Positions 36,951 to 52,975 of a stretch of DNA of 64,000 nucleotides are shown here, in pieces; the first letter of the stretch is position 1; each line of letters opens with the position of its first letter. The stretch comes from Cupriavidus consociatus. GTDB taxonomy: Bacteria > Pseudomonadota > Gammaproteobacteria > Burkholderiales > Burkholderiaceae. The stretch spans positions 372,001-436,000 of the forward strand of contig NZ_JAGIQA010000002.1 of the NCBI RefSeq assembly GCF_017814975.1, in the 5' to 3' direction. Made by a program: the position numbers and the translations under genes. The notes beneath the pieces are model-generated. The model was not told where the DNA came from. It worked only from the letters and a program-made list of their open reading frames with translations, and searched no databases.

Positions 36951-39272
36951 CTACGATGCGCGGGTGAGCGGCACGGCCGCGCCGCGCACGCGCTCCGGCC
37001 TGGCGCCGAGCACGGTGCGGATCCGCTCGAGCATTGCCGCCTGCTCTACGGTGGGCGTGGCGCCGAGCACGCGATCATCGGTACGCAGCTTCTCCGCCAG
37101 CGCCTGCAGCCGCTGGCGGTCGGCCTGGTGCCTGAGCAAGGCCGGCAGCGTCGCGAGCGCCTCCTCGGGCGCGTAGCGCGCGATCAGCTCCTGCCGGCCG
37201 CGGACCCTGCGCCAGGCGTCCGGCTCCAGTTCCGGCAACAGATCCGCATAGTCCGTGACCAGCTCCTTGCGCAGCTCCAGCCTGGACAGCGGCAGCGGCT
37301 CGCCCTTGCGGCTCAGCAGGCAGGCCAGCCGGGCGATGGCTTCGGCGTACCCGCCTTGTCCGGCCGCGGCCAGCGCCGCCTTGACTTCCGGCAGGTCGCG
37401 CGGGTCGGTCGCCGCCGGTGTGCCCGCATGCGCGGCAGGCTCGCTCTTTGGCTGGAACGGGAACAGGTTGGCGTACACGTTGAAGAAGGTGTACTCGGTC
37501 ATCGCATCGCGCACGGCCCGGTATGCGTCCAGTCCGGCGCTGAGCATTTCCGCGCCCGCCTGTTCCTGCTGCCGCAGCGGATGATCCGGTTCCAGCGCTT
37601 GCCGGTTGGCCTTGATCGCGTCGGCGGCAGGCTTCAGCCATGCCATCCACGGATTCAGGTCCGAGAACAGCCAGTTCTGCATGCGGAGCGGATGGAATTC
37701 GCGCAGCATCCGCGCTGTCATCTCGTTGGACATCGCCTGGACGTAAGGCTGCGCAAACAGCTCGTAGGCGCGCTGCGTAAAGTCCGACAGGTTCGCGACG
37801 GTCTCGAAGGGCCGCTCGTCGACGCGCCCAAAGCGGTTAAGCCTGCTGGCGATCTCCTCGAGCGAATGCTCCTCGAACTCGACCTCGTACTCCACGCCAT
37901 CGCTGCCCTTGCGCTCATGGATGACCATGCCGTAGAGCCCCGGCGGCAGCAGCTCGATGCTCTTGAGCACCGAGACGATCTGGGCGTGCTCCTTCTGCGC
38001 GACCTTGCCGGAGACGAAGATGCCGAGATGGCCGACACTGCGATGCATCATGCCGACGATCACCTGGCCGCGAGTCTTGATCTCCTCGGTACTGCCGTAG
38101 ATGTCCACCACCCAGTTGAATGCCTGCTGCGGCGGCGTGATGTTGTCGCCCATCGAGGCAAACAGCACGATGGGCGAGCGGATCTCGCGCAGGTCGAACG
38201 CCTTGCCGCCGGCGTTCCTGACGTCACCGCCCCAGAGCTTGTTGCCGACGAACAGATTGCGCGTGATCCATTCGATCTCCTCGCGGTTCATCAGGTAGTA
38301 GCCGCCCCACCAGCGTTCGAACTCCAGAAAGCGCGGCGGCTCGGTATCGGCCTTCCGGTACAGGTTGTAGTACTTGTCCCAGAGACTGTTGGCAGGATTC
38401 AGGTTCTCGAAATTCTGGACCAGCCAGGCGCCATCGAACTTGCCGTTGCCGAGGTCCGCCGTGAACGAGGCCAGCCAGGTGCCGCCAAGGAGCCCGCCGG
38501 AATAGCGCATCGGGTTGTCGCCTTCGCTTTCGCTCCAGGCACCGCTCCAGTACGACATCGGCGCGCCGTTGATCACGATCGGGCCGGTGTCGTCGGGATC
38601 CGAGGCGCCCAGCATCATCGCGGCCCAACCTCCCTGGCAATTGCCGATGATGGCAGGCTTGGGGCTGCGCGGATGCAGCGCACGCACCTTCTTGACGAAC
38701 TGCTGCTCGGCCTCGCACACGTCCAGCAGGGTCTGCCCCGGCTCGGGATCGCGGAAGAAGATGACGAAATACACGGGATGGCCGGCACGCATTGCCACGC
38801 CGACCTGCGAGTCGTCCTTGAAGCCGCCGATGCCCGGCCCATGGCCCGCGCGCGGATCAATGATGACGTAGGGCCGGCGGCTGTCATCGATCGTCACGCC
38901 CTCAGGCGCCGTGATCTTCAGCAGCGCATAGTTGACCGGCCGCTCGAAGTGGCGCCCGTCCATGACCGTCTCGTAGCCGAAATGCAGGACCGGCTTGAGC
39001 CCCTGCATGGTATTTTCGACAAAGTTGTTGCCCCGCTGCCTGAGCGTGTCCCAGAACAGGATGGCGCGCTGCATGCTGTCGATGGCATAGGCATAGCCGC
39101 TCATCGGATCCATGCCGGCCATCGGCGTGGACGGACCGGTCCCCGGCGCGCCAACGGCTTGCTGCACGCGGCCGCCATAGGCCTCCTGCGCATTCTTCAG
39201 GCGCTTTTGCAGCACCATGCCGGTCTTGAGGCCAACTTCACGCGCGTGAACCAGTTGCTTTGCTGCATCCAT
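36951..39272 (-). CDS. DUF3141 protein, PHA-synthase-like alpha/beta hydrolase
   Basis: This 773-residue protein carries an alpha/beta-hydrolase core (about 95-440). A GxCxGG nucleophile box appears as GNCQGGW (Cys212), with an acid in SMGDNITPP (Asp376) and a histidine in SVGHLGIF (His415). This Cys-Asp-His set mirrors the lipase-like box of polyhydroxyalkanoate synthases. The C-terminal 330 residues are helical and unassigned. It is the first gene of an operon with pta and ackA, an arrangement seen with DUF3141 genes elsewhere. Its reaction is unknown; acyl-CoA polymerase, depolymerase or thioesterase activity would all fit. Confidence 0.85.
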   Translation of the reverse strand: MDAAKQLVHAREVGLKTGMVLQKRLKNAQEAYGGRVQQAVGAPGTGPSTPMAGMDPMSGYAYAIDSMQRAILFWDTLRQRGNNFVENTMQGLKPVLHFGYETVMDGRHFERPVNYALLKITAPEGVTIDDSRRPYVIIDPRAGHGPGIGGFKDDSQVGVAMRAGHPVYFVIFFRDPEPGQTLLDVCEAEQQFVKKVRALHPRSPKPAIIGNCQGGWAAMMLGASDPDDTGPIVINGAPMSYWSGAWSESEGDNPMRYSGGLLGGTWLASFTADLGNGKFDGAWLVQNFENLNPANSLWDKYYNLYRKADTEPPRFLEFERWWGGYYLMNREEIEWITRNLFVGNKLWGGDVRNAGGKAFDLREIRSPIVLFASMGDNITPPQQAFNWVVDIYGSTEEIKTRGQVIVGMMHRSVGHLGIFVSGKVAQKEHAQIVSVLKSIELLPPGLYGMVIHERKGSDGVEYEVEFEEHSLEEIASRLNRFGRVDERPFETVANLSDFTQRAYELFAQPYVQAMSNEMTARMLREFHPLRMQNWLFSDLNPWMAWLKPAADAIKANRQALEPDHPLRQQEQAGAEMLSAGLDAYRAVRDAMTEYTFFNVYANLFPFQPKSEPAAHAGTPAATDPRDLPEVKAALAAAGQGGYAEAIARLACLLSRKGEPLPLSRLELRKELVTDYADLLPELEPDAWRRVRGRQELIARYAPEEALATLPALLRHQADRQRLQALAEKLRTDDRVLGATPTVEQAAMLERIRTVLGARPERVRGAAVPLTRAS

Positions 39273-41192: not shown

Positions 41193-41882
41193 TCAGCCAT
41201 CGACGAACGAAACGAACTCGTCCAGCTCCAGCTTGCAAAGCTCCATGTTGTTTTCCGGAATGCTGTTGTCCGCATAGCCAAGCGACATTCCGGCCACGAT
41301 CATCTCCCCGTCGGGAATGGCGAGTCCTTCACGAAGCACCGCGGACTGCAGCGACCAGATCTGCTGCGGACACGTGTCGAGCTCCCGCGCGCGCGCGGCC
41401 AGCATGAGGTTCTGCAGAAAGCAGCCGTAGCAGATGAAGCTGGCCCATTCCAGGCGCCGGTCCATGGTGAAGATCAGTCCCACTGGCGCATCGAAGAACC
41501 GGAACTGCCGTTCGACGTCGCGCCGCCGCCCGGCGATATCGCTCCTGTGCACGCCCTGCGCATCGCCCAGCATTCCGCGAAACGTGTTGAAGCGCGACGA
41601 GAATGGCGCCGGCAATTCCGCTGGAAAGAACGGGTAATCGGGCACCAGTCCCTGGGGGTCGGCACGATACGCCTCGACCGCGGCCCCCGCGATCTTCTCG
41701 CGCGCCTTTCCGGTCAGCACATAGCAGCGCCATGGCTGCGTGTTGCTCGAACTCGGCGCGTATTTCGCGACCGACAGGATGTCCCTGACAGTCTCGATCG
41801 GCACCGGCCGGTCAAGGAAGCCGCGCTTGCTGTGGCGTCCGCGGATCAGCGCTTCTGTCATCTGGATTGCCTCCATCTTCAT
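41193..41882 (-). CDS. Nitroreductase-family flavoprotein
   Basis: This 229-residue FMN enzyme has the nitroreductase fold. It shows RHSKRGFLDRPVP (about 15-27) with phosphate-binding Arg/Ser, the APSSSNTQPW segment (about 42-51) and the C-terminal GMSLGYAD flavin loop (about 198-205). It would reduce nitro groups or quinones with NAD(P)H. GGAG precedes the ATG at 41882. It diverges from the maleylacetate reductase-like operon and shares a 253-bp control region with it. Its closest functional analogue may be MhqN of quinone-response operons, which is inference. Confidence 0.85.
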   Translation of the reverse strand: MKMEAIQMTEALIRGRHSKRGFLDRPVPIETVRDILSVAKYAPSSSNTQPWRCYVLTGKAREKIAGAAVEAYRADPQGLVPDYPFFPAELPAPFSSRFNTFRGMLGDAQGVHRSDIAGRRRDVERQFRFFDAPVGLIFTMDRRLEWASFICYGCFLQNLMLAARARELDTCPQQIWSLQSAVLREGLAIPDGEMIVAGMSLGYADNSIPENNMELCKLELDEFVSFVDG

Positions 41883-42135
41883 GTCTCCGTTCTAGTAGTG
41901 GTGGGGGTCGCTACGGTGGAAAAGATCATAGACACGCCCCCTGCCTTGTGAAGATGGCAATGCTTGAAAGCTTCGTTCGGAAGCGGCGAACGACCGGCAC
42001 CCCCTACAGGCCCCGGCGTCCAGATTCCTGGACGCTTCGTTCGCAAATCCCGCGTGCACGCGCTGACGCGATTCGCCTATCGTCCTACTCGGGATCGGAG
42101 ACCCGATCGCATACGAAAACATGGGGAGACATGGA

Positions 42136-43254
42136 ATGAACCAGTTGAAATGCCTGCCGCAGGAAGAAATTGTCTGGGGACATGACGTGCTGAAAACCGT
42201 CGCTGCCTCCATGGGGAACTACGGCATCCGCCGTCCGATCACGTTCACCGTCGAATTCCTTGAGGCATTGAACCGCGATCACCTGCAGCCGGCCATTGGC
42301 GACGGCGTGGGCACCTTCACCGGCCTGCCGCCGCATGTGCCCGATTTCGCCGTTCGCGACGGGCTGCGTGCCTGCATCGAGGCCGATGCGGGGTCGATCA
42401 TCGCGCTCGGCGGCGGCTCCGTGCTCGACGCCGCAAAGGCAGTCTCGTACCAGCATTTCCAGCAGACCGGCAGCTACCTGCCGATTGCGGCGATTCCGAC
42501 GACACTGTCCGGATCGGAGTTCTCCCACTACTTCGGGGTGACGGAAACGGACGGCCCGCAGAAGTTCAAGCGCAGTTATGCCGTACGCGAAACGACACCC
42601 AGGCTGGTGGTGCTCGATCCCCGGATGATCGTCGACACGCCACGCATGCTGCTGCTGAGCTCCGCCATCAAGGGGATCGACCACGCGGTGGAAGGCATGC
42701 GCCGGGTCGACGTGGATCACCCTCATGCCATCCTTGCCGCCAGGGGCGTGGAACGCTTCCTTGCCGTGCTGGAGAAGTGGCCGCGCAAGCTCGAGACGCG
42801 CGAGGCCATCGCGGGCGGCCTCGTGTCGGCCGACGACCTGCTGCAGCTTCAGCTCGCCGCGTGGCAGTGCTACTTCTATCCCGCTTCGGTCATCTACGGC
42901 CTGAGCCATCGCATCGGGCACATCCTCGGCGGGACCTTCGGGGTGCCGCACAGCGTGACATCGTGCATTGCGCTGGCGCCAGTCATCCGCGCCTGCGCCG
43001 GCGCCTATGGCCGCAAGCTCGAGATCTTCTCCATGGACCGTGGCAGCCGCACGCCCGCCGCGTTCCTCGCTGACCGCATCGAGTCAGCCGTGGATGCGCT
43101 GCAATTGCCAAGCCGGCTCGGCGACCTCGATTTCGATCGGGCAAGGCTTCCCGAGATGGCGGCCTTGCTCAAGCAGAACTATCCGTCCGAGGTCGGCGAC
43201 CTTGGCGAAGATGCCGGCATGAAGCTGGATGCGCTGCTGGAGAGCCTGTGGTAA
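42136..43254 (+). CDS. Maleylacetate reductase-like Fe-ADH superfamily enzyme
   Basis: This 372-residue enzyme has the group III (iron) alcohol dehydrogenase fold: NAD motif GGGSVLDAAK (92-101), PTTLSGSE (121-128) and the C-terminal helical half. Three of the four classical metal ligands remain (His183, His258, His272), but the first, normally Asp, is Lys179 in KGIDH. Maleylacetate reductases also lose that Asp. It should therefore reduce maleylacetate or a related enone-diacid to 3-oxoadipate with NAD(P)H. I use the ATG at 42136 with GGAG before it; ATG 42121 is possible. It overlaps the amidase gene by 7 bp. Confidence 0.75.
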   Translation: MNQLKCLPQEEIVWGHDVLKTVAASMGNYGIRRPITFTVEFLEALNRDHLQPAIGDGVGTFTGLPPHVPDFAVRDGLRACIEADAGSIIALGGGSVLDAAKAVSYQHFQQTGSYLPIAAIPTTLSGSEFSHYFGVTETDGPQKFKRSYAVRETTPRLVVLDPRMIVDTPRMLLLSSAIKGIDHAVEGMRRVDVDHPHAILAARGVERFLAVLEKWPRKLETREAIAGGLVSADDLLQLQLAAWQCYFYPASVIYGLSHRIGHILGGTFGVPHSVTSCIALAPVIRACAGAYGRKLEIFSMDRGSRTPAAFLADRIESAVDALQLPSRLGDLDFDRARLPEMAALLKQNYPSEVGDLGEDAGMKLDALLESLW

Positions 43255-44648
43255 CGAACGCCCCGCCCTCCGACTGCATCCCGCATCCCGCAAGCCTGCG
43301 CCACGCGCTCGAGGCCCTTGCCAGACGGCAGGTCACCGCGACAGGCCTGGTCGAGGAGGCGCTGCGCCGCGCGCAAGCCAGCAAGCAATCGCTCAACGCG
43401 TTCGCCGCCATCGACCGGGACCGCGCGCTGCAAGCCGCCGCTGAAAGCGACCGCCGCTACGGCGCAGGCAGCCAGCGTCCGCTGGAAGGGCTGCCCATCG
43501 CCATCAAGGACCTGATCGACACGAAGGGCATCGAAACACTGTATGGATCTGCCGCCAGTCGCGGCAATGTTCCCGCTGCCGATGCCGACATCGTGAAGAC
43601 ATTGACGGAATCCGGCGCCATCGTCATCGGCAAGACCACCACCCACGAGTTTGCGTGGGGCGTGACGACCGCCAGCCCGAACTTCGGCGACACCCTCAAT
43701 CCCCTCGACCGTTCCCGCATTCCCGGCGGCTCGAGCGGCGGCGCCGCGGCGGCGATCGCGGATGGCGCGGTGATGGCGGGCGTGGGCACCGATACAGGCG
43801 GCTCGGTCCGGATCCCGGCCGCGCTCTGCGGTGTCGTCGGCTTCAAGCCGACGCTGGGCACGCTCTCCACGCGCGGCGTGTTTCCGCTGGCCCCCACGTG
43901 CGACCACGTTGGCCTGCTTGGCCGACAGGTCGATGACGTGCTGGTGCTCGCCGCTGCCGTTGGCATCGAAATCCCCTGCAGCGATGCAAGACCTTCCGCC
44001 CGACTCGGCATCGTCCGGCACATCGCGCCGGTTCCGCTGAGTCCGGAGATCGCCCGCGCATTCGATGACGCCGTGGAGCGACTGGCACAGCGCTTCGCCT
44101 GCGTAGACCTCGGCGGGACCGGCCACTTCGATCCCATGTTCGATGCCGTCTTCGATACCTTCGCGGCCATCGTCCTCATCGAGGGCGGAATCGAGCATTT
44201 CCGCCGCCACGACTGGGATCGCATCGCCACGCATTACAACCCCGAAACGGTCGACAGGCTCAGACGCGCGCAAACCATGGACCTGCGCGCCTATGCGGCC
44301 GCCCAGCAGGCCAGGCGGCATTTCACGGCCCGCCTGCATGAAGTGATGTCGACACTCGACTACCTCGTGCTGCCGACCTGCCCCTGCACCGCCCCGCCCC
44401 GCGATGCCGCCACTGTCGACATCGGAAACTGGGCCGGCACCGTCCGCGAAGCCCTGATGACCTATACCGCGCCGTTCAACGTCGCGGGCTATCCCGCCAT
44501 CTCGATTCCGCTGCCGTCCCGCAACGGCGGCCTGCCGGCGTCATTGCAGATCGTCGCCAGGCCCGGCGGCGACGGCGCGCTGCTGCGGGTCGCGCAGCAG
44601 ATGGAGTCGTTGCTGGGGACCGTCTCCGACCGTTTCCATCGCACATGA
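43248..44648 (+). CDS. Amidase-signature hydrolase
   Basis: This 466-residue hydrolase cleaves an amide or carbamoyl bond. The Ser-cisSer-Lys triad is visible: Lys in PIAIKDLIDTKG (about 87), Ser in PGGSSGGAAA (about 163) and nucleophile Ser in GTDTGGSVRIPA (about 187). It starts at a GTG that overlaps the preceding stop, so translation is coupled to the maleylacetate reductase-like gene. In this operon it may hydrolyse a ring-opened N-acyl or formyl product made by the TDO-like enzyme, or release an aromatic from its amide. Both are inference. Confidence 0.88.
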   Translation: MVTNAPPSDCIPHPASLRHALEALARRQVTATGLVEEALRRAQASKQSLNAFAAIDRDRALQAAAESDRRYGAGSQRPLEGLPIAIKDLIDTKGIETLYGSAASRGNVPAADADIVKTLTESGAIVIGKTTTHEFAWGVTTASPNFGDTLNPLDRSRIPGGSSGGAAAAIADGAVMAGVGTDTGGSVRIPAALCGVVGFKPTLGTLSTRGVFPLAPTCDHVGLLGRQVDDVLVLAAAVGIEIPCSDARPSARLGIVRHIAPVPLSPEIARAFDDAVERLAQRFACVDLGGTGHFDPMFDAVFDTFAAIVLIEGGIEHFRRHDWDRIATHYNPETVDRLRRAQTMDLRAYAAAQQARRHFTARLHEVMSTLDYLVLPTCPCTAPPRDAATVDIGNWAGTVREALMTYTAPFNVAGYPAISIPLPSRNGGLPASLQIVARPGGDGALLRVAQQMESLLGTVSDRFHRT

Positions 44649-44681
44649 CTTGCCTGACCACACCACCACGAGGAGACCAAA

Positions 44682-45599
44682 ATGAACGATATCGTCAAGC
44701 CCGTCAAACCCGCCTCCCCGGCGCCGGCCGGAACGCCGGCCGGGCATACGCCATACAGTGACTGGTTGCAGACAGACGTGCTCCACTCGCTGCAGCGCCC
44801 CGTCAGCGATCATCCCGGCGAGCATGCCTGGATCGTGTCGGCGCAGGTGTCCGAGCTCTACTGGATGCTGATCATCAAGGAGATGCAGGCCGCGCAGGCG
44901 CAATTGCGTGCCGATGACCTGACCGGTGCCTGCCGGACGCTGCGGCGCGTCGTCGCCCACCACGAGCCGCTCAATGCCACATGGCGCTCGATCGCATGGA
45001 TGACGCCGGTCGACCTGCTGGCGATCCTTTCCTGCGTTGGCCCGAAATTCGGCAAGGACACCGCCCTCCAGGGCTGGACCTACCGGCAGATGGTCTACCT
45101 GCTCGGCATCAAGCAGGAGGAGCACCTGCAGCACTTCCTGCCGCAGCCGCAGCGCTGGGAACAGCTCAGCAAGGCGCTGGCGGAGCCGAGCCTGTATGAC
45201 GACGTGCTTGCCCACCTGAGCCGCAAGGGCTTCGCCGTGCCGGCAGTGGCGCTCGACCGCGATTTCAGCGTGCCCTACACGCCGGACAAGGCCGTCGAGA
45301 ACGTCTGGCGCGACGTCTACGCCGATCCCGACCAGCACCGCGAACTGCAGCAGCTCGGCGAGACGCTGGCCGATATCGCGGAAGGATTCGCCGCGTGGAA
45401 GCACCTGCACCTGATGGCGACGCGCCGGACCTTCGGCGCCAGGCCGGCCTACTTCGGCACCGAGGGCATTGCCTGGCTGCTGCCGACCATGAACGAGATC
45501 CCGTTCCCGGAACTCTGGTCTGCGCGCGGCTTCATCGGCGATGCGCCCGCGGTGTGTCCCCACGCCCGCGGACAGGGAAGCGCCCGGGCAGCGGAGTGA
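44682..45599 (+). CDS. Divergent tryptophan 2,3-dioxygenase-like haem protein
   Basis: This 305-residue protein has the helical TDO fold: YSDWLQTDVLHSLQ (25-38), VSELYWMLIIKEM (56-68) and WTYRQMVYLLG (132-142, with the conserved Arg135). The haem-binding His243 lies in WKHLHLMATRR. The distal histidine of TDO (His55 in the Xanthomonas enzyme) is replaced by Ala54 in IVSAQVSEL. The substrate loop GTGGS reads GTEGI (259-263). These changes argue against tryptophan as substrate. GAGGAGA precedes the ATG. It lies third in an operon for hydroquinone-type catabolism. Confidence 0.78.
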   Translation: MNDIVKPVKPASPAPAGTPAGHTPYSDWLQTDVLHSLQRPVSDHPGEHAWIVSAQVSELYWMLIIKEMQAAQAQLRADDLTGACRTLRRVVAHHEPLNATWRSIAWMTPVDLLAILSCVGPKFGKDTALQGWTYRQMVYLLGIKQEEHLQHFLPQPQRWEQLSKALAEPSLYDDVLAHLSRKGFAVPAVALDRDFSVPYTPDKAVENVWRDVYADPDQHRELQQLGETLADIAEGFAAWKHLHLMATRRTFGARPAYFGTEGIAWLLPTMNEIPFPELWSARGFIGDAPAVCPHARGQGSARAAE

Positions 45600-45627
45600 C
45601 GTGATCAACCATGAGCCGGAAGAACCC

Positions 45628-46674
45628 ATGCCCAATGACTTGCTGAGAAACCTGGCAGCCGGCGCCCGCGCTGCCATCGCCGATCCTGCGCGGATCACCA
45701 CGGTGGGAACCGATGCCAACCCGCGCTTCGAGCTGTTCCACGCCGCGAGTTCGCTGTGCTCGCAGAAGGTCCGCACGGTGCTGTTCGAGAAGCAGTTGCC
45801 GTACCGATCGAACGATATGCTGATCCTGAGTTCGATGGGCCCGGACGGGGTCATTCCCGCCGAGCACTATCACCCGCCATATGTGCGCCTGCGACTGAAG
45901 GCCGGACTGGAGATCGGGCGGGAGTTCGTCAGCGGATATAGCGGGCGCCCTTCCGTGGAGACCGACGGCTTCGATCCGTGTGCGGTGCCGTTGCTGATTG
46001 ACTACGAAGCCTCCCGCGTGATTGCAGATTCCCGGCGCATCTGCTGCTATCTCGACGCGGTATCGCGCACGCCAGTCCAGCTCTTGCCGGACGATTCCCT
46101 GGCGCGTACGGAGGTGATGCGCCAGGTGCGCATCATCGACCAGATGCCGAACGGCGCCCTGCTGTACGGCTCTCATCCCGACGCCGACCGGCGGCCCGAG
46201 GCGCTCAGGACGGTCATGGAAACCATCTACGACCACAAGATCGCAGCGCTCGAGGCCATGCTCGCCGACAATGCCGGGGACGCCGGACTCGTTGCCGCCT
46301 ATCGCGCGAAGATCGTGAAGGAACGCGGCGGCCGGGCGCTGCGCCGCGATGCCCCATTCCAGCGCGCGGCCCGGGATCACGTCGATGTCGCGCTGAAGGA
46401 GCTGGACCGCACGCTGGAATCCGCACCGGCTCCGTATCTCGCGGGAGACGCGTTCTCCCTTGGCGATGTGCTGTGGGGTGTCAACCTGGTGCGGCTGGCG
46501 TACCTGGGGCTTGCGCCGATGTGGGACGAGCTGCCCAACGTTGCCCGCTATGTCGACGCACTGGTCAGGCGGCCTTCGCTCTGCAAGGAGGCGGTCCGCG
46601 CCACGATCGACTCGCTGCCGCCATCGCCCCGGATGGATGCCTTGGCAAGCTGCATGGAAACGGCGACGGCCTGA
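45628..46674 (+). CDS. Glutathione transferase-fold protein, LinD-like
   Basis: This 348-residue protein has a thioredoxin-like N-domain with a reactive-looking cysteine in SSLCSQKVRT (Cys44) and a long helical C-domain ending with an NVARYVDALVRRPS helix. The opening PRFELFHAASSLCSQKVR, the VSGYSGRPSVETDGFDP block and the overall length resemble LinD, the glutathione-dependent 2,5-dichlorohydroquinone dechlorinase; this is from memory of the family. It may remove a halogen, isomerise or conjugate a hydroquinone. An upstream GTG at 45601 is an alternative start. A strong terminator follows. Confidence 0.72.
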   Translation: MPNDLLRNLAAGARAAIADPARITTVGTDANPRFELFHAASSLCSQKVRTVLFEKQLPYRSNDMLILSSMGPDGVIPAEHYHPPYVRLRLKAGLEIGREFVSGYSGRPSVETDGFDPCAVPLLIDYEASRVIADSRRICCYLDAVSRTPVQLLPDDSLARTEVMRQVRIIDQMPNGALLYGSHPDADRRPEALRTVMETIYDHKIAALEAMLADNAGDAGLVAAYRAKIVKERGGRALRRDAPFQRAARDHVDVALKELDRTLESAPAPYLAGDAFSLGDVLWGVNLVRLAYLGLAPMWDELPNVARYVDALVRRPSLCKEAVRATIDSLPPSPRMDALASCMETATA

Positions 46675-46718
46675 GCTGTTGCCATCGCGCCATCGGCCTG
46701 TGCCGGTGCGCGAATCGA

Positions 46719-46748
46719 GCGGAGACTGCGAGTCTCCGCCCTTTTTTT
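46719..46748. terminator. Intrinsic terminator of the TDO/GST operon
   Basis: Nine-base arms GCGGAGACT (46719-46727) and AGTCTCCGC (46731-46739) with a three-base loop are followed by seven T. It lies 45 bp after the GST stop and just before the stop of the convergent wrbA-like gene. Confidence 0.9.
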
Positions 46749-46766
46749 GCCGTCAGGCTTCTACTT

Positions 46767-47393
46767 TCAGGCTGCCACAGGCTCCGGCTGGACGTGCAAG
46801 GCACGCGCGACAGTCGTCACCCTGCGCCCCTGGAACCGTGCAACCTCCAGGTGATCGTCGTCGGGCTTCACGGTGTCACGCTGCGAGACGTGAGTCGCGC
46901 CGTACGGGGTGCCGGCCTTGAACATCGCCGCGTCGGCATAGCCCAGCGGCACGATGATCAGGCCCAGGTGCGCCATGGGCGTGTAGGCCGCCAGCAGCGT
47001 GGCTTCATTGCCGCCGTGGCGCGAGGACGTCGTGCCGAACACAGAGCCCACCTTGCCGTTCAACTTGCCGGCGAACCAGAGGCCGCCGAGCCCGTCGATA
47101 TAGGACTTGAGTTCGGCCGAGATCGTCCCGAAGCGCGTCGGCGTGCCGAACACGATGGCATCAGCCCACTCGGCATCGGCTTCCGTCGGCGCCTCGTATT
47201 TCGCGTTCATCTCCGTGGCGTTCTCGAGCCAGCCCGGCGCCTGCCGCATGACGTCAGGGCCAACGAACTCCCGCACACGCCGAACGCGCAGTTCGGCGCC
47301 TGCCTCGAGGGCGCCCTCGGCGACAGCCTTGGCCAGCATCTCGGTGGAGCTGTTCCGTGAATAGAAAACGATCAGTACTTTCGGTTTCCGCAT
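46767..47393 (-). CDS. wrbA: WrbA-type NAD(P)H:quinone oxidoreductase
   Basis: This 208-residue flavodoxin-fold enzyme reduces quinones to hydroquinones by two electrons with NAD(P)H. FMN-binding loops are visible in IVFYSRNSSTEMLA (about 8-21), FGTPTRFGTISAELK (about 83-97) and GTTSSRHGGNEATLLA (about 120-135). The ATG at 47393 is chosen over an upstream TTG. It lies 17 bp after the ring-cleaving dioxygenase gene in the same direction and would keep its hydroquinone substrate reduced. Confidence 0.9.
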   Translation of the reverse strand: MRKPKVLIVFYSRNSSTEMLAKAVAEGALEAGAELRVRRVREFVGPDVMRQAPGWLENATEMNAKYEAPTEADAEWADAIVFGTPTRFGTISAELKSYIDGLGGLWFAGKLNGKVGSVFGTTSSRHGGNEATLLAAYTPMAHLGLIIVPLGYADAAMFKAGTPYGATHVSQRDTVKPDDDHLEVARFQGRRVTTVARALHVQPEPVAA

Positions 47394-47410
47394 ATCGATC
47401 CCCGGCAACG

Positions 47411-48361
47411 TCAGGCAGAGATGGGCTCGAGCCGGCCCAGCAGTTCTTCCTTGCGATCCGCCAGCCAGGGCGGCAACTGGAACTCCTCGCCAAAATGGCC
47501 GGGCGCTTCATCGATCGAGAAGCCGATGTCGGTGGTCGTCGCCTCGAACATCACGCCGCCGGGCATCTTGAAGTACATCGAGCGGAAGTAGTTGCGGTGC
47601 ACCGATTCCGACGTATCGATGTAGCCCATGGCAAACAGTTTCTCCTTCAGGACCGCCTGCTGTTCGACGTTGTCCACCGCGAAGGCCACATGGTGGATCG
47701 TGCCTTCGCCGTAGATCGACGAGCCCTGGTGCCGGTCCGGCTCATGCAGGAACTCTACGACCGTACCCGGACCGCCGGTGTACGTCTCGAAGCGATAATA
47801 AGGTCCCGCCTGGCCAACGTTGCGGAAACCGATCGCTTCGCTCATGAAGCGAATCGATTCGGCGACATCGCGCAGCGAAAGCGTAATACTGTGCACGCCA
47901 CGGATGGCGTGGACTTCGGGGATATCGCTGGCCACGCAAGCCGGACGCGGGTCGAGGTCCGTTTCGACAAGATCGAACTCGATGCCGCACGGATGCTGGA
48001 ACCGCTGGCGGCGCTCACCGAAGCGCTCGACGATCTCGCTGTCATACGGCACATTCATGGCATCGAAGCGGCTGCGCCAGAATTCGAGCGAGCCCGTGGG
48101 CACCGAGTAGTTGATGACCCGCACCTGGCCCGAACCCTGACGCGCCATGACGCCCCGCTGGCGGAACGGGAACGACGTCACCAGGGTTCCCGGATCGCCA
48201 TTCGCGTTGCCGTAGTAAAGGTGGTAGATGGGATCCTCGCCGTCGAGAAGCACGGTCTTCTTCACGAGGCTCTGGCCGAGCAGCCTGACGTAGAAATCCA
48301 CGTCCTCCTGCGCGTGCCGCACGCCGGCGGTCAGGTGATGAAATCCCTTGAGCATTGACAT
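47411..48361 (-). CDS. Hydroquinone ring-cleaving dioxygenase, PcpA/LinE/MhqO type
   Basis: This 316-residue type I extradiol-like dioxygenase of the glyoxalase superfamily would cleave (chloro- or alkyl-)hydroquinones using Fe(II). It has two glyoxalase-type modules (about 5-140 and 155-300). The likely iron ligands are His9 in GFHHLTAG, His224 in GTIHHVAF and Glu273 in GGVMFEATT, at the spacing found in PcpA. GGAGAGG lies just before the ATG at 48361; a second ATG is six bases later. It shares an operon with wrbA and diverges from a LysR gene. Confidence 0.88.
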   Translation of the reverse strand: MSMLKGFHHLTAGVRHAQEDVDFYVRLLGQSLVKKTVLLDGEDPIYHLYYGNANGDPGTLVTSFPFRQRGVMARQGSGQVRVINYSVPTGSLEFWRSRFDAMNVPYDSEIVERFGERRQRFQHPCGIEFDLVETDLDPRPACVASDIPEVHAIRGVHSITLSLRDVAESIRFMSEAIGFRNVGQAGPYYRFETYTGGPGTVVEFLHEPDRHQGSSIYGEGTIHHVAFAVDNVEQQAVLKEKLFAMGYIDTSESVHRNYFRSMYFKMPGGVMFEATTTDIGFSIDEAPGHFGEEFQLPPWLADRKEELLGRLEPISA

Positions 48362-48630
48362 TGTCCTCTCCATTTTGAAATAGGCATGTAGAAACAGCGC
48401 AGAGCCGCTCCTGCGCAACAGCTTATGACGGCAGATTCCGCTTGGGCAGCCGTCCCGGGTTGCACGCAGGGTTCGGCAAACTTGGACAATGGCGCCCTGC
48501 GAGGCGCGGTGCGCCCAAGGCTTGCCCGGATGGCAGCGGGCGCCGGCGCTGGAGTATGATCGGGGCGTCACCCACCCGCCCCCCTCAACAAACGCCGCCG
48601 GCATTGGAATGCCCGGCGAGTCCCCATGCC

Positions 48631-49542
48631 ATGCTCGATCTGAAGGACGTCTATTACTTCGTGCAGGTGGTCGACCGCGGCGGATTCACCGCCGCTGGCG
48701 AGGCGCTCCGGCTTCCGAAGTCAACGCTCAGTCACCGCGTGAAGGAGCTGGAAGCCTCGCTGGGCGTGCGGCTCATCAACCGGACCTCGCGCCAGTTCGC
48801 GATGACGGAGGTGGGTCAGGAGTTCTACCAGTACGCCTTGGCGCTGATGCGCAGTGCCGAGCTTGCCGAAGAAGCCATGCGCCAGCGGCTGGCGGAGCCG
48901 AGCGGCGTGATCCGCGTGACGGTGGCTGTGGACATTGCCCAGTTCGCGCTGCGCCACGTCCTGCCGACCTTCCTATCCGACCACCCCAAGGTGAGAATCG
49001 ACGAAACCGCCACGGACAGGATCGTGGACATTGTCGGCGAGGGGTTCGACCTGGCGATCCGGGGTCATGTCGGCCAGCTGCAGGACTCCAACCTGGTCCA
49101 GCATCCGCTGGCCAGGACACCGTGGTATCTCTTCGCGGGGCCCGACTATCTCGAACGGACGTCAGTGCCGACACAACCCGAGGATCTTGCGTCTCACACC
49201 ATCATCGCCATGGCGGGCAAGAGTGCGTCCCAATGGCAATTGCAGGGCCCGGACAAGCGCGTGGTCACCGTGCCGTTTGAACCGAGATTCCTGAGCAACA
49301 GCCTGATTTCGCTGAAAGAGGCGGCGTGCGCGAACGTCGGCGTTGCCGCGCTGCCGGTATACGCCTGCCAGGCCGAGCTCAAGGCTGGCGGGCTGCGGCA
49401 GATATTGCCGGAATGGATTGCCGCGGACGCCCGTATCACCGCACTCATTCCCTATCGCACGGGCCTGCTGCCGGCGGTCCGCACACTGGTGGACTATCTC
49501 GCCGTGGTGCTGCCCGAGGTGACGGCGTTCGACCGGCACTGA
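48631..49542 (+). CDS. LysR-family transcriptional regulator
   Basis: This 303-residue regulator has an N-terminal helix-turn-helix (about 1-60, GGFTAAGEALRLPKSTLSHRVKELEASLG) and a periplasmic-binding-protein-like effector domain (about 90-295). I use the ATG at 48631, as the open frame extends upstream without a ribosome site. It diverges from the dioxygenase-wrbA operon across 269 bp, the classic layout for a LysR activator, and resembles the linR position in lindane pathways. A hydroquinone is the likely effector, by inference. A TATGAT box at 48555-48560 may belong to its promoter. Confidence 0.9.
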   Translation: MLDLKDVYYFVQVVDRGGFTAAGEALRLPKSTLSHRVKELEASLGVRLINRTSRQFAMTEVGQEFYQYALALMRSAELAEEAMRQRLAEPSGVIRVTVAVDIAQFALRHVLPTFLSDHPKVRIDETATDRIVDIVGEGFDLAIRGHVGQLQDSNLVQHPLARTPWYLFAGPDYLERTSVPTQPEDLASHTIIAMAGKSASQWQLQGPDKRVVTVPFEPRFLSNSLISLKEAACANVGVAALPVYACQAELKAGGLRQILPEWIAADARITALIPYRTGLLPAVRTLVDYLAVVLPEVTAFDRH

Positions 49543-50250: not shown

Positions 50251-51264
50251 ATGGCACTTGATCTCGACAATCGCTTCGGCCGCATCTCGCTTGGATTCTT
50301 TCCATCGCCGATTCATCGGCTCGACCGCCTGTCCGAAGCGCTCGGCGTCTCGGTGTGGGCAAAGCGCGACGATGTCTCGTCCGGACTCGCGTTTGGCGGC
50401 AACAAGATTCGCAAGCTTGAGTGGCTCGCCGCCGACGCGGTGCGACAAGGCGCCGACACGCTCGTTTCCATCGGCAACATTCAGTCGAACCACACGCGTC
50501 AGGTTGCGGCTGTCGCGGCGGTGCTCGGCATGCGCTGCCGGCTGGTGCAGGAGGCGTGGACACACTGGGACGATCCGGTCTATGACAAGGTCGGCAATAT
50601 CCTGCTGTCACGGCTGATGGGCGCCGAGACGCTGCTCGAGGGCGAGGGCTACTCGACCGAGGTGAAGGAGACGTGGTCGCGCGCCCTGGAGCAGGTGCGC
50701 CGGGAAGGCGGCAAGCCTTACGCGATTCCAGCGGGTGCATCCGATCATCCCCTTGGTGGTCTCGGCTATGCGAACTTCACCGATGAGCTCGCGCGCCAGG
50801 AAGCGCAAATGGGCGTGTTCTTCGACACCGTGATTACCGCGACCTGCACCGGTTCGACACAGGGCGGCATGGTCGCGGGCTTCAAGGCCCAGGACCGGCC
50901 GCGCCGCCTGATTGGCATCGATACCGCCTGCAACGAGGCGATGACCCGGCGTGCCGTGACGAAGAGCGCGCGGCAGACTGCGGAACTGATCGGCATCCGG
51001 AAGCCGATCGACGACGCCGACGTGGTCATCGATCCCCGTTTCTCGGGTCCGGACTATGGCATCCCTGACGATCGGACGATCGATGCGATCCGCACGGCAG
51101 CGCGGCTTGAGGCGATGCTCACCGATCCGGTGTACGAGGGCAAATCGATGGCAGGCCTGATCGCCATGGCGAAGGCGGGTGAGATTCCGAAGGAAGCGAA
51201 CGTGCTGTACGTGCATCTGGGTGGCGCGCCCGCGCTGAATGCGTATCACAAGGCGTTCGCATGA
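50251..51264 (+). CDS. acdS: 1-aminocyclopropane-1-carboxylate deaminase
   Basis: This 337-residue PLP enzyme of the tryptophan-synthase-beta fold would break the plant ethylene precursor ACC into 2-oxobutyrate and ammonia. The Schiff-base lysine is Lys52 in FGGNKIRKLE and the catalytic serine is Ser79 in IQSNHTRQ. The residues used to tell ACC deaminase from D-cysteine desulfhydrase are both in the deaminase state: Glu296 in VYEGKSM and Leu323 in VHLGGAPALN. The usual divergent acdR (Lrp-type) regulator is absent. AGGGAG precedes the ATG. It suggests life with plants. Confidence 0.88.
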   Translation: MALDLDNRFGRISLGFFPSPIHRLDRLSEALGVSVWAKRDDVSSGLAFGGNKIRKLEWLAADAVRQGADTLVSIGNIQSNHTRQVAAVAAVLGMRCRLVQEAWTHWDDPVYDKVGNILLSRLMGAETLLEGEGYSTEVKETWSRALEQVRREGGKPYAIPAGASDHPLGGLGYANFTDELARQEAQMGVFFDTVITATCTGSTQGGMVAGFKAQDRPRRLIGIDTACNEAMTRRAVTKSARQTAELIGIRKPIDDADVVIDPRFSGPDYGIPDDRTIDAIRTAARLEAMLTDPVYEGKSMAGLIAMAKAGEIPKEANVLYVHLGGAPALNAYHKAFA

Positions 51265-51306: not shown

Positions 51307-51492
51307 CTATGCCAGCCGCTCAGCCATGCAGGCCGCCAGGTCAAGCAGCTGATCCCTGCAGTTCAAGCCGATGCCGGGAAACAGCCGTGCGATCCCGGTG
51401 CAGCTCAGCATCGCCATGACAAATACGTATCCGGCCACGAGCGCCAGCGCCGGCTGGCCGTGGCTCGCTGAGGCCAGGTTCTGACTATTCAA
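51307..51492 (-). CDS. Possible small membrane protein overlapping the patatin end
   Basis: A 61-codon frame starts at a TTG that overlaps the patatin stop by a few bases. It encodes one clear hydrophobic stretch (PALALVAGYVFVMAMLSCTGIA, about 14-35). The overlap would allow coupled translation, but the start is weak and no family is recognised. Confidence 0.25.
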   Translation of the reverse strand: MNSQNLASASHGQPALALVAGYVFVMAMLSCTGIARLFPGIGLNCRDQLLDLAACMAERLA

Positions 51493-52975
51493 CGCCGTAT
51501 CGCGCCGCGGTCGATGCGCGCTCGAATTCGCGGATCACCGGGTTGCCAAGGATGGCATCCCGTCCCGCTTCGATCAGGCGATCGACGTCCTGCTCGGGCA
51601 GGCGCAGCCTGGTCGGCAGATCGTTCAGGCTTGCAGCACGCTCCTTGCCTAGGGCATCGAACGAGATCCGCGTGACGAAGAATTCGACTTCGTCGCACCG
51701 CCAGCGCGGGAGGCGTGCAGCGATTTCCCGCTGCCGGTCAAGCGGCAGCCGGCACCGATACGCCACGAGGTCGTTTCGCCACTGCTGCATCATGGGGACG
51801 AAGGCGTCATAGGTCATTCGAACGTTGGTTGCCATTGCCGCGTCAATGGCCGCGTTTGCGACTTCGATGCCGGAGGGTCCATCCTGGCTTTGGTTCCAAT
51901 CGCCGCGCGGGCCCTGGCCTGCGTCTACAACGATGAAAAGCAGCCGCCGCACATTGATCGCGTCATTCTCGCTCATCGGACCGTAAGGCGTGCCCAGCAG
52001 CATGCGCGATTGCAAGATCGTGGCCAGGCCGTAGTTGTCGGTCACCCCGCCGTCGACCAGCTTGATGTACTTTCCCTTCGAAGTGTCCCGGAGATCGCGA
52101 ACGGCGTTTGCCAACGCACCGAACAGCAGCGATTGCCCGGGCGCCTGGGCACGGTCAAGGTTCGGCAGCGGTGCACTGCAAGCCTCGGGATGCTTTTGAA
52201 CGACGATCGGTGCGAAGAAGACCGGGACCGCCATGGATGCGGCGACGGCCTCGGAAACCGGAAAGCTCGCGAGATCGCTGCATAGCGCATCGAATGCATG
52301 CTGGCTGAACGGGAACGCGACTCGGTAGTAGACGTTGGTGGCGTTGATCCAGACGATCGGCTTGCCGCGGCGGAACATGTCGGCGTACGTCGCGCCCTTG
52401 AAGACGTCTTCGTCGAGCCATGCCTGGAGGTCTTCCCGGTCGTTGAGCCCTCCCGCGAACAGGCGCGCAAGGTTGACCGGATTCAGGAGACTGAAGCGAA
52501 GTCCCGCCTCTCCGTCCTTCAACAGCACGGATCGCAAGTTCGCCAGGCTGGCCTTGCCGTGCAGACCGAAGTACGCGGCGGTGATGGAGCCTCCGGACAC
52601 GCTGCTGATGAATGCGACGTTGTCCAGCAGGGACGCGCTCCCAGGGCCTTTCATGGCGTCGAGTCCCTGCAGGGCGCCGAAGGCGAAGGCTGCGGCGCGC
52701 GTGCCACCGCCGGAGAACGACATGGCGACGGTTGTCTGGCCGACGACATCGATGGGCTCGCGCATGGCCGCGGATACGCTGCCAGCCGCGGCCTGAGGCA
52801 GATTGCGCGGAGCATTGTGAGGAAGCGACCCGCAGGCACCGAGTCCCGCGAGCAGAAGCGGCATCAGGGTGCGGCAGGCCCTGCCGCAGGCGAGTCGCGC
52901 TCTCCCCGGCCCCTCCATTTGCCAAGGCAGGCTGCTCTTGCGTCGAAGCGCGTGGTCATGTCGAAGCTTCCACAT
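51485..52975 (-). CDS. Patatin-like phospholipase, probable lipoprotein
   Basis: This 496-residue protein has a signal ending MPLLLAGLGACGS, so lipidation at about Cys48 is likely. The patatin core (about 80-350) shows the oxyanion loop SGGGTRA, the nucleophile in SVSGGS (about 126) and the catalytic Asp in VDGGVTDN. It should cleave phospholipid or lysophospholipid in the envelope. The annotated start (ATG 52975) gives a long N-region before the signal; ATG 52918 is an alternative. The C-terminal 130 residues are helical and unassigned. Confidence 0.85.
   Translation of the reverse strand: MWKLRHDHALRRKSSLPWQMEGPGRARLACGRACRTLMPLLLAGLGACGSLPHNAPRNLPQAAAGSVSAAMREPIDVVGQTTVAMSFSGGGTRAAAFAFGALQGLDAMKGPGSASLLDNVAFISSVSGGSITAAYFGLHGKASLANLRSVLLKDGEAGLRFSLLNPVNLARLFAGGLNDREDLQAWLDEDVFKGATYADMFRRGKPIVWINATNVYYRVAFPFSQHAFDALCSDLASFPVSEAVAASMAVPVFFAPIVVQKHPEACSAPLPNLDRAQAPGQSLLFGALANAVRDLRDTSKGKYIKLVDGGVTDNYGLATILQSRMLLGTPYGPMSENDAINVRRLLFIVVDAGQGPRGDWNQSQDGPSGIEVANAAIDAAMATNVRMTYDAFVPMMQQWRNDLVAYRCRLPLDRQREIAARLPRWRCDEVEFFVTRISFDALGKERAASLNDLPTRLRLPEQDVDRLIEAGRDAILGNPVIREFERASTAARYGVE

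What the first reader, a model, noticed from the sequence alone, without database searches (positions are those of the whole stretch)
41193..49542. Candidate new catabolic system: TDO-like and amidase steps feeding a hydroquinone pathway
Facing operons encode a maleylacetate reductase-like enzyme, an amidase, a TDO-like haem protein, a LinD-like GST, a LinE/PcpA/MhqO-type ring-cleaving dioxygenase, a WrbA quinone reductase and a LysR regulator, flanked by a divergent nitroreductase. The lower half resembles the lin/pcp hydroquinone route. The TDO-like enzyme and amidase are not part of that route in systems I know. One reading is that the haem enzyme oxygenates an N-heteroaromatic or aromatic amine, the amidase removes the resulting amide, and the hydroquinone formed is dehalogenated or isomerised, cleaved and reduced to 3-oxoadipate.
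Basis: partly seen in the sequence, partly recalled or inferred. Interest (0 to 1): 0.85.

Follow-up and report, generated by a model that had tools for sequence, protein, structure and literature searches.

The report
Nitrophenol-breakdown cluster with unexplained haem protein
This is a bacterial gene cluster of a known type for breaking down meta-nitrophenol; in the two genera tested it always comes with an unstudied haem-type protein that may carry out the one step whose published enzyme assignment looks doubtful.

Summary
The gene calls are right, but the system is known. It matches the mnp (meta-nitrophenol / 2-chloro-5-nitrophenol) cluster of Cupriavidus: nitroreductase MnpA, LinE-like aminohydroquinone dioxygenase MnpC, LinD-like GST MnpD, amidase MnpE, maleylacetate reductase MnpF, LysR MnpR (PMC5604080). 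The "flanking" nitroreductase is the first enzyme. The amidase most likely acts after ring cleavage, because the proposed cleavage product of aminohydroquinone is an amide. The N-heteroaromatic reading is not supported.

The TDO-like protein is not mentioned in that paper's text. It tracks the cluster strictly: the same 24 of 60 Cupriavidus genomes carry MnpA, MnpC and TDO-like (one more has a TDO-like fragment only), and the same 19 of 101 Variovorax genomes carry MnpC and TDO-like. It keeps the proximal haem His but has lost the distal His and the Tyr/Arg of the tryptophan site, so it is not a kynurenine-pathway TDO.

By elimination I propose that it is the missing arylhydroxylamine mutase. 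A MnpA homologue on pCNB1 has no TDO-like gene within 12 kb but a putative membrane mutase near by, and the published mutase candidate seems (inference) to be housekeeping glutamine synthetase. Against this, I recall the purified mutase as colourless and cofactor-free. Probability of the mutase role: about 0.35.

The parts
41193..41882 (-). MnpA-like nitroreductase, first step (nitrophenol to hydroxylaminophenol)
   Evidence: PF00881; 78% to the nitroreductase of C. pinatubonensis HN-2; at 75% or more in 24 of 60 Cupriavidus
41883..42135 (.). divergent intergenic region between the mnpA-like gene and the mnpF-like operon, likely regulatory
   Evidence: position only; not tested
42136..43254 (+). 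MnpF-like maleylacetate reductase (Fe-ADH family)
   Evidence: PF00465; MAR1 9ph0 E 2e-32, 3jzd E 5e-25; 43 of 50 TDO-like loci
43248..44648 (+). MnpE-like amidase, proposed to hydrolyse the ring-cleavage amide; overlaps the preceding gene by 7 bases
   Evidence: PF01425; 42 of 50 loci
44682..45599 (+). TDO-like haem protein, unassigned; candidate hydroxylaminophenol mutase
   Evidence: PF03301; below the TDO equivalog cut-off; residues; TDO fold; co-occurrence
45628..46674 (+). MnpD / LinD-like glutathione S-transferase, proposed reductive dehalogenase
   Evidence: GST domains; 41.8% to LinD; 45 of 50 loci
46767..47393 (-). WrbA NAD(P)H:quinone oxidoreductase
   Evidence: NF002999 over cut-off; 39 of 50 loci
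47411..48361 (-). MnpC / LinE / PcpA-like aminohydroquinone ring-cleaving dioxygenase
   Evidence: PcpA 4huz E 1.6e-72; LinE 41.4%; 81% to HN-2
48631..49542 (+). MnpR-like LysR regulator, divergent from the mnpC-wrbA operon
   Evidence: PF03466 and PF00126; 46 of 50 loci

Best explanation
This is an mnp-type cluster that mineralises meta-nitrophenol and chlorinated analogues, or a natural compound that enters the same way, by partial reduction. MnpA reduces the nitro group to a hydroxylamine. A mutase converts hydroxylaminophenol to aminohydroquinone; I propose that this is the TDO-like haem protein, acting without O2 on the N-O bond. MnpD removes chlorine if present and WrbA keeps the hydroquinone reduced. 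MnpC opens the ring between C1 and C2 to an amide. The amidase hydrolyses the amide to maleylacetate, which MnpF reduces to 3-oxoadipate. MnpR regulates. Shown here: gene identities, strict co-occurrence, loss of the tryptophan-site residues. Shown in the literature for CNP-8 proteins: MnpA on 2-chloro-5-nitrophenol, MnpC on hydroquinone and chlorohydroquinone. Inferred: the WrbA, amidase and MAR steps here, haem binding, and the role of the TDO-like protein. The confidence given is for the cluster's identity and pathway with the TDO-like gene as a true member; for the mutase role itself it is about 0.35.
For: Gene content equals the published mnp set. C. pinatubonensis HN-2, same species as strain JMP134, has the same eight genes together at 61.5-81% identity. 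Co-occurrence: MnpC at 80% or more in 24 of 60 Cupriavidus, MnpA at 75% or more in the same 24, TDO-like in those 24 plus a fragment in G331 (recounted in 95; in one of the 24, G385, all three match over only part of their length). In Variovorax MnpC in 19 of 101 and TDO-like in the same 19. In 50 TDO-like loci of beta-, gamma- and alphaproteobacteria, MnpA is present in 45 and all eight genes in 34; four of the other five loci have MnpA elsewhere in the genome. Gene order is shuffled while content persists. Active site in 53 sequences: Tyr113 equivalent Leu in 53, Arg117 Leu in 52, distal His55 Val/Ala/Thr in 52 (one gap), proximal His kept in 51. Purifying selection: TDO-like dN/dS 0.135-0.198 in four pairs, within the 0.056-0.268 of five neighbours. 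Mutase by displacement: pCNB1 of Comamonas CNB-1 has a 72% MnpA homologue and no other mnp gene within 12 kb on either side; a 150-aa membrane-like protein lies 1.1 kb upstream, agreeing with the printed order cnbB-cnbA, and has no match in 60 Cupriavidus. GlnA occurs in 59 of 60 Cupriavidus with or without mnp; HN-2 (G341) has one copy.
Against: No enzyme activity was or could be tested. I recall, but could not read (PMC93532 not held), that 3-hydroxylaminophenol mutase purified from JMP134 was a colourless 62-kDa protein resembling glutamine synthetase that needs no cofactor; that speaks against a haem mutase. In CNP-8 the transcript of mnpB rose 38-fold on the nitrophenol. One TDO-like genome (L063, Variovorax J2P1-59) has no MnpA at E 1e-60 or better, so there the TDO-like gene persists without the step that would feed it. 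Two Rhizobium plasmids (BG6, BG7) have MnpA, LysR and WrbA but no TDO-like gene in 28 kb. Similarity does not show that this strain grows on nitrophenol. That the pCNB1 150-aa protein is the mutase CnbB is inferred from gene order and recall: an FMO-like ORF lies between it and the nitroreductase, it matched no Pfam or NCBIfam model, and one search had no positive control.
Confidence: 0.85

Rival explanations
1. The mutase is glutamine synthetase, as published for mnpB, and the TDO-like protein is a haem oxygenase that hydroxylates a side product such as 3-aminophenol to aminohydroquinone, in the manner of the tyrosine-hydroxylating or MarE branches of its superfamily.
For: The fold is that of TDO, and other members of the superfamily are monooxygenases, some on tyrosine and its derivatives (passages). 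The proximal His is kept. A published mutase assignment exists.
Against: A salvage enzyme need not be obligate, yet TDO-like is present in every genome with MnpC in two genera at the thresholds used. GlnA does not track the cluster.
Confidence: 0.3
2. The TDO-like protein and the LinD-like GST form an oxidative dehalogenation pair for halogenated aminohydroquinones.
For: The two genes are adjacent in many loci, including rhizobial ones (L081, L087) where no other cluster gene was found within about 10 kb (MnpA lies about 12 and 22 kb away).
Against: 5 of 50 loci keep TDO-like without a GST; in six of nine S. medicae plasmids the GST matches in two pieces while TDO-like matches in one.
Confidence: 0.1
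3. The TDO-like protein is a haem-based protector or sensor (nitroso compounds, NO, peroxide) and not a pathway enzyme.
For: The substrate-site residues are lost while the haem ligand is kept.
Against: Strict co-occurrence and long runs of clade-specific conserved residues, around 124-135 and 243-257, look catalytic; a regulator (LysR) is already present.
Confidence: 0.15
4. One reading: the TDO-like enzyme opens an indole or other N-heteroaromatic ring, the amidase deformylates the product (a KynA/KynB analogue), and the result enters the hydroquinone route.
For: The TDO plus amidase pair is formally like KynA plus formamidase; the amidase's best-scoring NCBIfam model is indoleacetamide hydrolase, though below its cut-off (302.9 against 532 bits).
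Against: The distal His and tryptophan-site residues are lost; a MnpA-type nitroreductase is nearly always present; the amidase has a natural substrate in the published aminohydroquinone route.
Confidence: 0.05

Closest known systems
mnp cluster of Cupriavidus sp. CNP-8 and C. pinatubonensis JMP134 (meta-nitrophenol, 2-chloro-5-nitrophenol; PMC5604080, passages plus sections 20 and 24 read)
   Same: MnpA, MnpC, MnpD, MnpE, MnpF and MnpR all have counterparts here; identities to LinE (41.4%) and LinD (41.8%) are close to the published 42% and 40%.
   Different: The words tryptophan and heme do not occur in that paper's main text, and the passages read name no WrbA; the published mutase MnpB lies outside the cluster. 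Figure 4A was not seen, so whether CNP-8 carries the TDO-like gene in place is not known to me; HN-2 does.
lin / pcp (chloro)hydroquinone routes
   Same: LinE-, LinD- and maleylacetate-reductase-type enzymes.
   Different: Nitroreductase, amidase and TDO-like gene; about 41-42% identity to LinE and LinD only.
cnb pathway of Comamonas CNB-1 (pCNB1)
   Same: A nitroreductase 72% identical to MnpA.
   Different: A putative membrane mutase and no TDO-like; no LinE, amidase, MAR or GST of the mnp type within 12 kb.
Tryptophan 2,3-dioxygenase / haem-dependent aromatic oxygenase superfamily
   Same: Fold and proximal His.
   Different: Distal His, Tyr113 and Arg117 replaced; about 34% identity to the canonical TDO of the same genome; scores 240.5 against the equivalog cut-off of 390.7.

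Membership tests
mnp (meta-nitrophenol) catabolic cluster | MnpA-type nitroreductase | tested here: met
   78% to HN-2; same 24 of 60 Cupriavidus as MnpC. CNP-8 and JMP134 sequences themselves were not at hand
mnp (meta-nitrophenol) catabolic cluster | LinE-like aminohydroquinone dioxygenase MnpC | tested here: met
   81% to HN-2; 41.4% to LinE
mnp (meta-nitrophenol) catabolic cluster | LinD-like GST, amidase, maleylacetate reductase and LysR in the cluster | tested here: met
mnp (meta-nitrophenol) catabolic cluster | hydroxylaminophenol mutase | tested here: inconclusive
   two GlnA-type genes in the genome, none tracking the cluster; TDO-like is the other candidate
mnp (meta-nitrophenol) catabolic cluster | growth on or turnover of meta-nitrophenol | not testable with these tools
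   needs cultures or enzymes
tryptophan 2,3-dioxygenase (kynurenine pathway) | TIGR03036 equivalog cut-off | tested here: not met
   240.5 against 390.7 bits
tryptophan 2,3-dioxygenase (kynurenine pathway) | distal His55 and tryptophan-site residues Tyr113, Arg117 (role of Tyr113 recalled) | tested here: not met
   A, L, L here; replaced across the clade
haem-dependent aromatic oxygenase superfamily (His-ligated) | fold and proximal His | tested here: met
   Foldseek 2nox E 1.2e-13, TM 0.72/0.84; His in 51 of 53
haem-dependent aromatic oxygenase superfamily (His-ligated) | haem binding and oxygenase activity | not testable with these tools
   needs protein
lin/pcp hydroquinone pathway | upstream lin or pcp dehalogenation genes | not tested
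   no search for LinA, LinB or PcpB was made

The most novel reading that the evidence does not exclude
The TDO-like protein is the true 3-hydroxylaminophenol mutase of the mnp pathway: a histidine-ligated haem enzyme of the TDO fold that performs an enzymatic Bamberger rearrangement (redox-neutral N-O cleavage and ring hydroxylation). That would be a reaction class outside the oxygenations described for this superfamily in the passages I read, and would replace the glutamine synthetase assignment.
Probability: 0.35. Interest if true: 0.8.

Novelty: new member of a known kind. Interest (0 to 1): 0.5.

Why it matters
The cluster as a whole is ordinary: 24 of 60 Cupriavidus and 19 of 101 Variovorax genomes have it. 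What matters is that one gene with no role in the text I read is as tightly tied to the pathway as its named enzymes, and that the step whose enzyme looks doubtful is the chemically unusual one. A single deletion and a single assay would settle it. A haem arylhydroxylamine mutase would be new chemistry for a TDO-fold protein, and of use for nitroaromatic clean-up and aminophenol synthesis.

Tried and rejected
Rejected: a KynA/KynB-like indole route (active-site residues, nitroreductase); ACC deaminase 50251-51264 as a member (0 of 50 loci at 60% or more); a dedicated GlnA gene tracking the cluster (second GlnA copy in 15 of 60 genomes, 10 of them among the 24 mnp genomes). A search of 399 genomes of the order with MnpC found only the window's own genome and so tested nothing further. 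Rhizobium sp. BG6 and R. grahamii BG7 have MnpA, LysR and WrbA but no TDO-like, amidase, MAR or LinD-like gene in 28 kb; this may be a decayed or different cluster and counts against a strict MnpA-TDO link. Of the 19 plasmid records with MnpA at 60% or more, 16 are among the TDO-like records listed (40 of 105 listed); the three others are pCNB1, BG6 and BG7. Literature: ten searches listed no paper on this TDO-like gene, but the lists of 27, 28, 63, 73 and 92 were capped (30 of 236, 30 of 392, 15 of 50, 20 of 32, 15 of 570) and the library lacks most subscription journals, so 'not in print' is not claimed. The AlphaFold model has low confidence at 249-266, near the pocket, so no docking was attempted. 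The alignment for the model (A2) used 38 of the 53 sequences; 14 loci and one second copy were left out by my choice, to thin near-duplicates and to avoid some overlong or truncated calls.
Full report
What is there. The window lies in an 8.3-Mb genome. The + strand operon maleylacetate-reductase-like, amidase, TDO-like, GST faces the - strand operon dioxygenase, WrbA; the LysR gene diverges from the latter and the nitroreductase from the former.

It is the mnp cluster. The paper on Cupriavidus sp. CNP-8 (PMC5604080; passages, sections 20 and 24) describes mnpA nitroreductase, mnpC aminohydroquinone dioxygenase (42% to LinE), mnpD LinD-like GST (40% to LinD), mnpE amidase, mnpF maleylacetate reductase and mnpR LysR, for meta-nitrophenol and 2-chloro-5-nitrophenol. 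Our dioxygenase is 41.4% identical to annotated LinE and our GST 41.8% to annotated LinD. C. pinatubonensis HN-2, of the species of the classical strain JMP134, carries the eight genes together at 61.5-81% identity. The CNP-8 and JMP134 sequences themselves were not at hand. The paper proposes that MnpC cleaves aminohydroquinone to 6-amino-4-hydroxy-6-oxohexa-2,4-dienoic acid. This is an amide, so the amidase is explained: I infer that it gives maleylacetate for MnpF.

The TDO-like gene is a true member. A search of genome contigs with an alignment of the clade gave 50 loci in Cupriavidus, Paraburkholderia, Variovorax, Pseudomonas, Massilia, Pseudorhodoferax, Rhizobium, Phyllobacterium and others (two of the loci are from one genome). 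Within these loci I found MnpA in 45, LysR in 46, GST in 45, Fe-ADH in 43, amidase in 42, WrbA in 39, LinE-type in 39, and all eight genes in 34 (thresholds in the script; seven loci are clearly cut by contig ends). Of the five loci without MnpA, four lie in genomes that have it elsewhere; L063 does not. In whole genomes of the window's genus, MnpC at 80% or more occurs in 24 of 60, MnpA at 75% or more in the same 24, and TDO-like in those 24 plus a fragment in one more (recount 95). In one of the 24 (G385) all three match over part of their length only. In Variovorax 19 of 101 have MnpC and the same 19 have TDO-like. Related genomes are not independent, so I give no p-value.

It is not an ordinary TDO. 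It scores below the NCBI equivalog cut-off. Against X. campestris TDO, whose numbering can be read from the alignment of the H55A mutant 3bk9, distal His55 is Ala, Tyr113 is Leu and Arg117 is Leu. Over 53 sequences: Leu at 113 in 53, Leu at 117 in 52, Val 38 / Ala 13 / Thr 1 / gap 1 at 55, proximal His in 51; the two without it are second copies in Variovorax. Six canonical TDOs from the same family of bacteria, one of them from the window's own genome, keep Tyr and Arg in 6 of 6 and distal His in 5 of 6, and the clade is separate from them with local support 0.947. In MarE, a relative, His55 and Arg118 bind the substrate and their mutation weakens binding (passages of PMC11904535); the role of Tyr113 is recalled. 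An AlphaFold2 model (38 sequences, mean pLDDT 75.4) matches TDO structures best (2nox, TM 0.72/0.84). So it most likely binds haem, but the substrate should lack an amino-acid headgroup, as aminophenols and hydroxylaminophenols do.

What it may do. In the published route every step but one has a cluster-encoded enzyme. The exception is the mutase, assigned to MnpB, which lies on another contig and was not assayed in that study. From its quoted mass (about 52 kDa with tag) and from my recollection of Schenzle 1999 (not held) I take MnpB to be a glutamine synthetase. GlnA is present in 59 of 60 genomes at E 1e-100 or better; a second copy exists in 15, ten of which are among the 24 mnp genomes, and HN-2 (G341) has one copy. 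So no GlnA gene tracks the pathway, whereas the TDO-like gene does. On pCNB1 of Comamonas CNB-1 a nitroreductase 72% identical to MnpA stands without TDO-like within 12 kb; 1.1 kb upstream of it, beyond an FMO-like ORF, lies a 150-aa protein that reads as a membrane protein, and a review table gives the order cnbBARCabDEFGH (passage of PMC7494797). I infer that the 150-aa protein is the mutase CnbB; it matches no Pfam or NCBIfam model and has no match in 60 Cupriavidus genomes, in a search without a positive control. By elimination and displacement I propose the TDO-like protein as mutase. Against this stand the recalled report of a colourless, cofactor-free purified mutase, the 38-fold induction of mnpB, the genome of L063, and the two Rhizobium plasmids with MnpA but no TDO-like near by. 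I give this step about 0.35.

GST partnership is not the whole story: five of 50 loci keep TDO-like without GST, and in six of nine S. medicae plasmids the GST matches in two pieces while TDO-like matches in one. TDO-like evolves under constraint (dN/dS 0.135-0.198 in four pairs; MnpA 0.126-0.216, Fe-ADH 0.109-0.147, amidase 0.200-0.268, GST 0.231-0.259, LinE-like 0.056-0.099).

Verdict. The haem protein is a real and testable gap.

Noticed in passing
L035:241-1404 (S. medicae pSymA); BG4 locus L093 has a weak LinE match (29%) in the same place: The eight rhizobial-type loci show no close MnpC; in S. medicae a 387-aa VOC protein stands before Fe-ADH, with its halves in swapped order relative to LinE (residues 105-189 match the LinE C-half, 214-274 the N-half).
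   Followed up: partly
L055:15572-16279 and L058:16304-17092: Two Variovorax clusters carry a second, diverged TDO-like copy (48% and 54%) that has lost the proximal haem His.
   Followed up: no
L041, L042, L044-L046: In these Cupriavidus, Paraburkholderia and Burkholderiaceae loci MnpA, Fe-ADH, TDO-like and LinE-type are 92-97% identical to the window but amidase and GST only 72-78%, sitting elsewhere with another LysR: a mosaic cluster.
   Followed up: no
L029: A TDO that groups with the canonical ones but has Ala at the distal His position, with Tyr113 and Arg117 kept.
   Followed up: no
   Followed up: partly
window 50251-51264: ACC deaminase gene (TIGR01274, 468 bits over a cut-off of 392) just beyond the cluster; not conserved with it.
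   Followed up: partly
window 36951-39272 (-) and 51485-52975 (-): Neighbouring genes: a 773-aa DUF3141 protein (PF11339, 872 bits) and a 496-aa patatin-like phospholipase (PF01734, 63.5 bits).
   Followed up: no
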